A DNA stretch of 64,000 nt, from the NCBI RefSeq assembly GCF_000024965.1, contig NC_013530.1:1798001-1862000 (forward strand). Direction: 5' to 3'. This document shows, one piece after another, positions 15,288 to 64,000 of the stretch. The first letter of the stretch is position 1; the number at the start of each line of letters is the position of its first letter. The notes beneath the pieces were generated by a model that saw only the letters and a list, made by a program, of their open reading frames with translations, did not search any database and was not told the origin of the DNA. A program made the translations under genes and the position numbers. This DNA is from Xylanimonas cellulosilytica DSM 15894. GTDB taxonomy: Bacteria; Actinomycetota; Actinomycetes; Actinomycetales; Cellulomonadaceae.

Positions 15288-15388
15288 GGTCGAGCCTGTC
15301 GGGTCTCCGGCGGTTGAGCCTGTCGAAACCCCTCCGCTGGTTGAGCCCGTCGAAACCGCTCTTCCCGGTGGTTGAGCCTGTCGAAACC
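15288..15388 (+). repeat. cluster of the 19-mer GGTTGAGCCTGTCGAAACC
   Basis: Exact copies at 15312-15330 and 15370-15388, a one-base variant at 15339-15357 and a degenerate copy at 15288-15305, spaced 27-31 bp apart. Each copy is an imperfect palindrome (GGTT...AACC). The same 19-mer recurs in both orientations at 26882-26943. The cluster lies between rel and ligC; read in frame it adds a false N-terminus to the ligase. Confidence 0.9.
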
Positions 15389-26810: not shown

Positions 26811-26947
26811 GTCGAGCCGTCCCCGGTGGCCTCGCCGCCCCCGGTGGTTGAGCCGCCCCCGGTGGTTGAGCCGCCACCGGTGGTTGAGCCTGTCGAAACC
26901 ACCCCCTCCCGCGTGCTGTGGGGTGGTTTCGACAGGCTCAACCACCG
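26811..26947 (+). repeat. 19-mer repeat element with a 28-bp perfect inverted repeat
   Basis: At 26811-26880 degenerate GGTGGTTGAG units recur at about 18-bp spacing. Then 26878-26905 and 26920-26947 are perfect 28-bp inverted arms with a 14-nt loop. Each arm contains the 19-mer GGTTGAGCCTGTCGAAACC found downstream of rel. It sits between aspS and the GNAT gene and could end aspS transcription. The frame is open through it, which creates a false Pro/Val-rich N-terminus on the next gene. Confidence 0.92.
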
Positions 26948-62635: not shown

Positions 62636-63838
62636 ATGACCGATGCGTTGCGCCTCTTCACGTCCGAGTCCGTGACCGAGGGGCACCCGGACAAGGTCTG
62701 CGACCAGATCTCCGACGCCGTCCTCGACGCCATCCTCGACCAGGACCCGCACGCGCGCGTCGCCGTCGAGACCATGGTGACCACCGGGCTGGTGCATCTC
62801 GCGGGCGAGGTCACCACCAGCGCGTACGTCGAGATCCCGCAGATCGTGCGCGACGTCGTGCGTCGCATCGGGTACACGTCCTCGGCGATCGGGTTCGACG
62901 GCTCCTCGTGCGGCGTGTCCGTCTCGATCGGTCAGCAGTCGCCGGACATCGCGCAGGGCGTCGACAAGTCCGCCGAGCAGCGCGACGACGCCGCCGACCA
63001 CGACCCCCTCGACGCGCAGGGCGCCGGCGACCAGGGCCTGATGTTCGGGTACGCCTGCGACGACACCCCACAGCTCATGCCGCTGCCCGCCTGGCTCGCA
63101 CACCGGCTCGCGGAGCGCCTCGCCGAGGTGCGGCGCACCGGCGAGGTCGCCGGTCTGCGCCCCGACGGCAAGACCCAGGTCACGATCGCCTACGACGGCG
63201 ACCGCCCCGTGCGCCTGGACGCCGTCGTCGTCTCCACCCAGCACCACGAGGACGTCCTGCAGGAGACCCTCGCCAAGGAGATCGCGACCAAGGTCGTGGC
63301 GCCCGTCCTCGACACGGTGCAGCTCGACACCACCGGCTACAAGCTCTATGTGAACCCGACCGGCAAGTTCGTCGTCGGCGGCCCGCAGGGCGACGCCGGC
63401 CTCACCGGCCGCAAGATCATCGTCGACACCTACGGCGGCATGGCCCGCCACGGCGGCGGCGCGTTCTCCGGCAAGGACCCGTCGAAGGTGGACCGCTCGG
63501 CGGCGTACGCCATGCGCTGGGTCGCGAAGAACGTCGTGGCGGCCGGGCTGGCCCGCCGCTGCGAGGTGCAGGTCGCGTACGCGATCGGGCGGGCGCACCC
63601 CGTGGGTCTCTACGTGGAGACGTTCGGCACCGAGACCGTGCCGGTCGCGCGGATCACCGCGGCGATCGACGAGGTGTTCGACCTGCGGCCCGCGGCGATC
63701 ATCGCGGACCTGGACCTGCTGCGGCCCGTGTATGCCAAGACGGCCGCGTACGGGCACTTCGGGCGGGAGCTGCCGGAGTTCACGTGGGAGCGGGTGGACC
63801 GGGTCGCGGCGCTGCGGGCTGCTGTCGCTGCTTCCTGA
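62636..63838 (+). CDS. metK: S-adenosylmethionine synthetase
   Basis: A 400-residue MAT making the cell's main methyl donor from methionine and ATP. It opens [20 protein letters not shown]; metal/ATP-binding [14 protein letters not shown] and the catalytic loop [19 protein letters not shown] are complete. A start at 62576 is possible but ATG 62636 has a leaderless promoter and the family's N-terminus. In many Actinobacteria priA follows metK; here the window ends after a large inverted repeat. Confidence 0.97.
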
Positions 63839-63841
63839 GCG

Positions 63842-63872
63842 TCTGGTCTTTCTCTGGTCTTTCTCTTCTGGT
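63842..63872 (+). repeat. pyrimidine-rich 11-bp tandem repeat (TCTGGTCTTTC)
   Basis: Two perfect copies and a truncated third lie directly after metK and just before the large inverted repeat. Unlike its GC-rich surroundings, it is CT-rich. Confidence 0.7.
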
Positions 63873-63873
63873 C

Positions 63874-63973
63874 GGTCCCGGGTCGGAGCGTGCGCGCGCA
63901 GCAGCGTTCACGGTCGCTGCGCGACCTCCACTTCGGGGTTGACTGCTGCGCGCGCACGCTCCGACCCGGGACC
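63874..63973 (+). repeat. 31-bp perfect inverted repeat after metK
   Basis: Arms 63874-63904 and 63943-63973 are exact complements (start GGTCCCGGGTCGGAGC), with a 38-nt loop that holds a further 6-bp hairpin GGTCGC-TGC-GCGACC. It begins 35 bp after metK. It could be the metK terminator, a cruciform-forming element or a small mobile repeat. The window's final 27 bases show nothing recognisable. Confidence 0.95.
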
Positions 63974-64000
63974 TGCTTGCGTTGTCGGCGTTCGTGACGT

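What the first reader, a model, noticed from the sequence alone, without database searches (positions are those of the whole stretch)
63874..63973. 31-bp perfect inverted repeat right after metK
Both arms are exact and the loop contains its own hairpin. Such long perfect arms are unusual for a simple terminator and can extrude cruciforms; it may be a small mobile repeat or a strong bidirectional terminator.
Basis: seen in the sequence. Interest (0 to 1): 0.5.

Follow-up and report, generated by a model that had tools for sequence, protein, structure and literature searches.

The report
Dispersed hairpin element after genes
The hairpin after metK is one of at least five copies, in this soil bacterium's genome, of an apparently undescribed roughly 100-base mobile hairpin seen so far almost only in its bacterial family, which settles just behind the ends of genes and keeps its long arms complementary although their sequence changes freely.

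Summary
In detail: 31-bp perfect arms (63874-63904 / 63943-63973) around a 38-nt loop with its own hairpin, 35 nt after the metK stop. It is not a single-copy terminator. The genome (size matches Xylanimonas cellulosilytica XIL07T) holds at least five copies. A covariance model matches 41 of 221 genomes of the GTDB family (three weakly), and 10 of 396 sampled from the order, nine of these in the family. In 169 copies from 33 genomes the ~30-bp arms differ from copy to copy yet are 97% Watson-Crick paired around an apical core (GCGTTCAC-hairpin-CTCCACTTCGGG). Copies lie just behind stop codons, often between convergent genes (72), rarely divergent ones (3). In four gene groups they sit in frame inside proteins. 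122 of 169 copies share a site with another genome. Yet one site lacks the element in four relatives, near-identical copies occur at unrelated sites, and five sites carry it in opposite orientations in different genomes, so it also spreads. REP/RAYT, Rfam and attC tests fail. Best reading: a new non-autonomous palindromic mobile element, like Rickettsia palindromic elements in behaviour, probably tolerated or used as a 3'-end hairpin. Mobilising enzyme and RNA role are unproven.

The parts
63874..63904 (+). 5' arm (31 bp), variable between copies
63905..63911 (+). conserved apical core, 5' part (CGTTCAC)
   Evidence: shared with the copies that DNA search alone found; invariant in 44 of 44 aligned copies, but that set was chosen by an exact core pattern
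63912..63926 (+). inner hairpin P2 (GGTCGC-TGC-GCGACC), covarying between copies
63927..63937 (+). conserved apical core, 3' part (TCCACTTCGGG)
   Evidence: same caveat
63938..63942 (+). 3' linker (GTTGA; 4-9 nt in other copies)
63943..63973 (+). 3' arm (31 bp), exact reverse complement of the 5' arm
62636..63838 (+). metK (S-adenosylmethionine synthetase, named from the sequence), host gene whose stop codon precedes the element by 35 nt

Best explanation
The inverted repeat is one copy of a roughly 95-105-nt non-autonomous, palindromic mobile element of the GTDB family that holds Xylanimonas, Isoptericola, Promicromonospora, Krasilnikoviella and Puerhibacterium. Shown here: an apical core with a covarying inner hairpin, carried on a ~30-bp stem whose sequence is nearly free but whose two strands stay complementary; near-identical copies at unrelated sites; placement just behind stop codons, with the 5' side towards the nearer gene in convergent regions; persistence at many sites; in-frame copies inside proteins. 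Inferred: a trans-acting enzyme recognises the folded single strand or cruciform by its shape plus the apical core and copies it to new sites. Copies behind genes survive because they do no harm there and can serve as 3'-end or terminator hairpins. The arms are kept complementary by DNA-level correction (template switching on the palindrome) and/or selection for the DNA hairpin, rather than by selection on an RNA that tolerates G-U pairs.
For: Copies: 5 in the own genome; exact pattern in 32 of 221 family genomes, reversed-pattern control 0 in all 221; model in 41 of 221. Structure: 44 copies, 26 pairs, 96.7% of cells paired against 64.8% in shuffles (0 of 500 as high) and 40-48% when slid; changes on both sides in 22 of 26 pairs; 6 G-U cells of 1,141. 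Whole set: 169 copies, 4,676 pairs, 97.1% Watson-Crick, 24 G-T, 63 A-C, 47 other. Placement: convergent 72, tandem sense 31, tandem antisense 27, divergent 3, inside ORFs 30, one-sided 6; sense gene nearer in 57 of 72 convergent cases, p 6.5e-7. Spread: the L060 copy in G142 lies between flanks 90-91% identical in G136, where the element is missing, as it is in G139, G134 and G147; its arms equal over 28 nt those of L312, at another site in G136, with flanks only 23% and 35% identical; L301/L312 (both G136) 96%, flanks 33% and 25%. Five sites carry copies in opposite orientations in different genomes; the arms of those 12 pairs are no more alike (0.518) than those of other pairs (0.511), unlike same-site same-orientation pairs (0.611), as separate insertions predict. 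Copies of one genome share the inner-hairpin variant more often (0.414) than same-site copies of different genomes (0.205) or other pairs (0.098). Persistence: 122 of 169 copies in 35 shared-site groups. Inside proteins: gcvP antisense, three other groups sense.
Against: No mobilising enzyme found; Y1 transposase is in 2 of 221 genomes, neither a carrier; no other transposase family was searched. No target-site duplication was demonstrated. The L060 gain came with a 20-bp tandem array, and in an eight-copy subfamily (G141/G146 type) similarity runs on some 160 nt past the 3' arm, so the unit is not always the hairpin alone. Most copies sit at shared sites, which also fits old, vertically kept functional elements. 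Tandem copies show no strand preference (31 sense, 27 antisense, p 0.69). Adjacent double changes, expected from template switching, are not significantly clustered (56 against 48.4, p 0.075). The T-rich tail is weak.
Confidence: 0.6

Rival explanations
1. A conserved functional 3'-UTR RNA (terminator or mRNA 3'-end stabiliser with a protein-binding apical core), inherited vertically, its arms kept paired by selection on RNA.
For: Position behind stop codons (median 34.5 nt, n=108) and near absence from divergent regions; 35 shared-site groups; T fraction 0.274 in positions 2-10 after the 3' end against 0.152 further on in 136 intergenic copies, with A depleted on the 5' side.
Against: G-U is rarer than A-C in the + strand (24 vs 63, p 3.5e-5), the reverse of what RNA pairing selection predicts; 112 of 193 double changes cannot pass through G-U; gain at an otherwise element-free site; opposite orientations at five sites; copies inside ORFs in both orientations (17 sense, 13 antisense).
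Confidence: 0.25
2. An ordinary single-copy intrinsic (bidirectional) terminator of metK.
For: Position 35 nt after metK, very stable hairpin.
Against: At least five copies in the genome and 169 examined in 33 genomes; the tail after the 3' arm has 3 T in its first 8 bases; 12 of 14 metK loci viewed lack the element.
Confidence: 0.04
3. A REP/REPIN-type element mobilised by a RAYT (Y1 HUH) transposase.
For: Palindromic, 3' of genes, 11 close inverted pairs with facing 3' ends (gaps 47-510 nt).
Against: Y1_Tnp in 2 of 221 genomes, neither a carrier; no GTAG tag; CGTC near the 3' end in only 40% of copies and at no fixed place; stems ~30 bp, against 8-9 bp in the published CGTC families.
Confidence: 0.05
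4. A recombination site folded from single-stranded DNA, like an integron attC site.
For: Sits behind stop codons; structure conserved, stem sequence free.
Against: The attC boxes (RYYYAAC ... GTTRRRY, recalled) are absent from the stem base, where the ends are mostly G...C flanked by C and T; upstream genes viewed are mostly housekeeping genes, not cassettes. Integron integrase was not searched.
Confidence: 0.06

Closest known systems
Rickettsia palindromic elements (RPE)
   Same: About 100-150 bp, long palindromic hairpin, intergenic and also in frame inside protein genes (passages in PMC2229807 and PMC3733652); no mobilising enzyme known (recalled).
   Different: Unrelated hosts; here the arms vary freely but stay complementary, the apical core is the conserved part, and copies lie mostly just behind stop codons. 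No sequence comparison with RPEs was made.
MITE-like small mobile sequences (NEMIS/Correia, YPAL, ERIC, RUP)
   Same: Small (about 100-200 bp), long stem-loops, mostly intergenic, some fused in frame (passages in PMC2229807).
   Different: Most of those carry terminal inverted repeats with a target duplication (table in PMC2229807); here the terminal arms are not fixed in sequence and no duplication was shown.
REP/REPIN with RAYT
   Same: Palindromic, 3' of genes, some inverted pairs.
   Different: No GTAG/CGTC tag in place, no RAYT, stem 3-4 times longer.
Intrinsic terminators of actinobacteria lacking strong U tracts
   Same: Strong hairpin after a stop codon; U-poor 3' ends with long stems are reported in Streptomyces clavuligerus (passages in PMC8269248).
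   Different: A dispersed, homologous, taxon-restricted repeat with a conserved apical core.

Membership tests
REP / REPIN (RAYT-associated) | RAYT (Y1_Tnp) in carrier genomes | tested here: not met
   PF01797 in 2 of 221 genomes (G074, G127), neither a carrier; control genomes ring in 5 of 14
REP / REPIN (RAYT-associated) | GTAG or CGTC tag at one end | tested here: not met
   GTAG in 3-4% of 14-nt flanks; CGTC within 14 nt of the 3' end in 40% of 157 copies against about 16% background, at scattered positions
Rickettsia palindromic element kind | palindromic ~100-150 bp unit dispersed in one taxon | tested here: met
Rickettsia palindromic element kind | in-frame copies inside unrelated protein genes | tested here: met
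   gcvP; HrpA-like helicase, abhydrolase/AMP-binding protein, nuclease/AAA protein
Rickettsia palindromic element kind | sequence homology to RPEs | not tested
   no RPE sequence was compared
MITE | fixed terminal inverted repeats with target-site duplication | tested here: inconclusive
   arms are inverted repeats but not fixed; flanks show mainly C at -1 (108 of 157) and T at +1 (116 of 157); the one empty site examined by base is not clean
Intrinsic terminator | G+C-rich stem followed by a U tract | tested here: not met
   scan of 63600-64000 found 0, though its 3-8 nt loop limit would miss this loop; the tail itself has 3 T in 8 bases where that scan asks for 5; family-wide T enrichment is modest
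Intrinsic terminator | RNA 3' ends at the site | not testable with these tools
   no RNA data
Rfam families | gathering-score match | tested here: not met
   window copy: best gabT 30.2 bits against gathering 45; 20 loci with copies: no match on the element
attC site | R''/R' boxes at stem base | tested here: not met
   boundary composition; box definition recalled

The most novel reading that the evidence does not exclude
A mobile element whose ends are defined by self-complementarity instead of sequence: a recombinase reads the fold of a single-stranded hairpin plus a ~35-nt apical code, and replication or transposition rewrites one arm from the other, so the terminal repeats drift without limit yet never lose pairing.
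Probability: 0.2. Interest if true: 0.8.

Novelty: new variant of a known kind. Interest (0 to 1): 0.55.

Why it matters
Small palindromic repeats are known, but this family offers about 170 examined copies, many at sites shared between species and genera, in which long arms change freely while pairing is kept almost without G-U pairs. That makes it a natural test bed for how perfect palindromes are maintained (template switching against selection), for a mobile unit recognised by shape, and for how 3'-end hairpins and protein linkers arise from mobile DNA. It also supplies a likely 3'-end element for annotating this actinobacterial family.

Tried and rejected
Single-copy terminator: rejected by the other copies. 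Phage or plasmid origin: the window copy has no match in phages or plasmids; all 11 viral contigs pattern matches lack arms (best score 6). RAYT mobilisation: rejected. Rfam RNA: none. In one search, 104 of 167 distinct pattern matches have arms (score at least 12) and the other 63 score at most 6.5; the far hits (Bacteroidales, archaea and others) that appear's printed list are in the armless part, so I take them as chance. The weak order-level hit G266 (E 3.9e-4) and the weak hits in genus g4 were not inspected.

In-place inversion of the core between the arms: considered for the five sites with opposite orientations, and not supported, since left arms are no more alike than in unrelated pairs (0.518 vs 0.511). 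I chose those 12 pairs from the 87, leaving out sites with two close copies, the site shared by L026 and L027, and tandem-array sites.

A first large copy set was wrongly anchored: searches took the leftmost fuzzy match, which misregistered some arms, and gave apparent block clustering of compensatory changes (p about 0.001). The corrected set gives p 0.075, and I rely on it. From I keep only the distances between close copies and the array finding. Clustering was chained by 20-bp tandem arrays in G136/G142; filter these. The 169 copies are those in loci I happened to hold (first-listed places, model top hits, named contigs), most of them fetched by the exact core pattern, so conservation of the core in them is partly by selection. 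G142 and G136 supply 49 of 169. Assignment of loci to genomes used contig lengths, by hand. Gene context rests on a GC3-based ORF caller of my own, not on annotation.

Full report
What is there. The window ends 27 nt after a 31-bp perfect inverted repeat (63874-63904 / 63943-63973) that starts 35 nt after the stop of metK. It is the longest perfect inverted repeat listed for the window and folds far better than shuffles as RNA and as DNA. The genome has contigs of 3,742,776 and 88,604 bp, 3,831,380 in all. The abstract of PMC3035249 gives 3,831,380 bp with an 88,604-bp plasmid for Xylanimonas cellulosilytica XIL07T (passages seen).

It is a repeat. DNA search of the own genome found two more copies, an exact pattern a fourth, and a covariance model a fifth at C1:465323. 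The copies share an apical core, GCGTTCAC-[5-6 bp hairpin]-CTCCACTTCGGG, and differ in the arms. The pattern occurs in 32 of 221 genomes of the GTDB family, in 6 of 25 genera, including all 18 genomes of genus g9, with up to 28 matches in one genome; the reversed pattern gives none. The model matches 41 of 221 family genomes at E<=0.01, three of them weakly, and 10 of 396 genomes drawn from the order, nine in the same family and one weak outside. Phage and plasmid collections have no match to the window copy. No Rfam family matches at gathering score.

Structure. In 44 copies chosen for differing arms (44 of the 66 listed, all found by the exact core pattern), 26 pairs are 96.7% paired, against 64.8% in shuffles and 40-48% when slid; 22 of 26 pairs have changes on both sides. 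In the larger set of 169 copies from 33 genomes arms have a median of 30 bp, and 126 copies match the 20 core positions exactly, the rest with 1-3 mismatches (up to 4 were allowed, and most copies were fetched by exact pattern). Of 4,676 inner pairs 4,542 are Watson-Crick, 24 G-T, 63 A-C, 29 pyrimidine-pyrimidine and 18 purine-purine. An RNA helix read from the + strand should favour G-U over A-C; the reverse is seen (p 3.5e-5). The minus strand would gain wobble pairs, but the excess over transversions is not significant (Fisher p 0.24). The A-C excess is seen in sense copies (41 vs 12) and, weaker, in antisense copies (19 vs 11). Counts include orthologous copies and are not independent.

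Evolution at fixed sites. 122 of 169 copies fall in 35 groups of homologous flanks, none with two copies of one genome. [quoted passage not shown] 81 of the 193 double changes could pass through G-U and 112 could not. For comparison, in rRNA stems 61.0% of instantaneous compensatory changes were G-U-reachable and 78.5% of two-step ones involved G-U (PMC8794818, abstract and one section read). Clustering of double changes is weak (56 adjacent against 48.4 expected, p 0.075), so template switching is plausible but not shown.

It also moves. Copies within one genome share the inner-hairpin variant (0.414) more often than same-site copies of different genomes (0.205), while the outer arms do not follow this (0.474 vs 0.513); G142 and G136 dominate that count. 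Near-identical arms occur at unrelated sites: L060 in G142 with L312 in G136 (28 of 28 arm bases, flanks 23% and 35% identical) and L301 with L312 in G136 (96%, flanks 33% and 25%). For L060 the flanks are 90-91% identical in G136, where 18 nt replace 284 nt that hold the element and a 20-bp tandem array. G139 and G147 lack both; G134 has a different array and no element. A lineage-specific gain is the simplest reading, but the array blurs the boundary, and in an eight-copy subfamily similarity continues some 160 nt beyond the 3' arm. At the two other G142 sites tested, L061 and L068, G136 does carry a copy, in the opposite orientation.

Opposite orientations. Over all copies, 87 pairs share both flanks in inverted orientation, against 167 in the same orientation. 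Many of the 87 belong to sites that hold two facing copies, or to arrays. After leaving those out, five sites remain (12 pairs), one of them inside the abhydrolase/AMP-binding gene (L269 against L032, L306, L347 and L376). The arms of these pairs are no more alike than those of unrelated pairs (0.518 vs 0.511; same-site same-orientation 0.611), which fits separate insertions at favoured places better than inversion of the core in place.

Where it sits. By a GC3 ORF caller: convergent 72, tandem sense 31, tandem antisense 27, divergent 3, inside ORFs 30, one-sided 6. In convergent regions the element lies nearer the gene that runs into its 5' side in 57 of 72 cases (p 6.5e-7; medians 29 and 86.5 nt). 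Upstream genes include metK, ilvD, glpK-like, rpoC-like, uppS-like, sdhB-like and hpf-like (translations, names recalled). T is enriched in positions 2-10 after the 3' end (0.264 vs 0.155; 166 copies) and A depleted before the 5' end, so any terminator action is more likely one-way. A simple terminator scan found none, but its loop limit would miss this loop. After metK itself, of 14 loci viewed, only G000 and G145 carry the element; G212 has a long hairpin without the core.

Inside proteins. In gcvP the element lies antisense in the linker between the two halves, in the same frame (PRADV-x-LPEVEGALAPVNASARG and variants): of 27 loci resolved, 10 carry it and 1 a degenerate form by pattern (3 of the 30 gcvP loci were not resolved). 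A twelfth, L254 (G166), was negative by pattern but is hit by the model inside gcvP. The 30 loci were the best matches to a query that contains the element, so they over-represent carriers. In three further protein groups the sense strand reads ..AFTGPxGPSTSG.. or nearly so, in an HrpA-like helicase, an abhydrolase/AMP-binding protein and a nuclease/AAA protein; in the third, 2 of 3 members carry that reading.

What it is. REP/RAYT membership fails, attC fails at the stem base (recalled definition), Rfam has nothing. The closest kind is the Rickettsia palindromic element: ~100-bp palindromes, intergenic and in frame in genes (passages of PMC2229807 and PMC3733652). It works like one; homology was not tested. 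I found no description in print in searches of an open-access library; PMC12306157 does not mention Isoptericola, Promicromonospora or Xylanimonas, and PMC3733652 does not mention Xylanimonas or Cellulomonas. This is a limited search. On re-checking I corrected the context total to 169, added the orientation result and the selection caveats, and left the odds as they were.

Noticed in passing
window 26878-26947 and 15314-15386; whole genome: TTTCGACAGGCTCAA occurs 443 times exactly in the own genome (220 forward, 223 reverse; reversed-pattern control 0) and 5 times in the window with up to 2 mismatches; one pair lies in the 28-bp perfect inverted repeat I2. A separate, far more abundant palindromic repeat.
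   Followed up: partly
L070 1859-2068, L085 4180-4372, L381 (G134): Arrays of a 20-bp tandem repeat (CTGACTCGCG... in G136/G142; CTACCTCGCG... in G141/G146/G134) often lie beside or between element copies, lineage-specific in sequence but with the same period.
   Followed up: partly
gcvP linker, L234-L263: The GcvP linker between the two halves is hypervariable in this family: genomes without the element carry unrelated, often low-complexity sequence at the same place.
   Followed up: no
L243 3562-3680 (- strand): Glycine riboswitch near gcvP in G143 (Rfam RF00504, 48.4 bits).
   Followed up: no
169 copies: In the arms, A-C and pyrimidine-pyrimidine mismatches (92) outnumber G-T and purine-purine ones (42) on the + strand, a strand asymmetry I cannot explain.
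   Followed up: partly
G212 downstream of metK (L211): A 178-nt intergenic region with a long hairpin lacking the conserved core; possibly a decayed copy.
   Followed up: no
L026, L027, L072-L076 and relatives: One convergent site (one gene looks like a CRP-type regulator) carries in several genomes two facing copies, one behind each gene, and single copies in others.
   Followed up: partly
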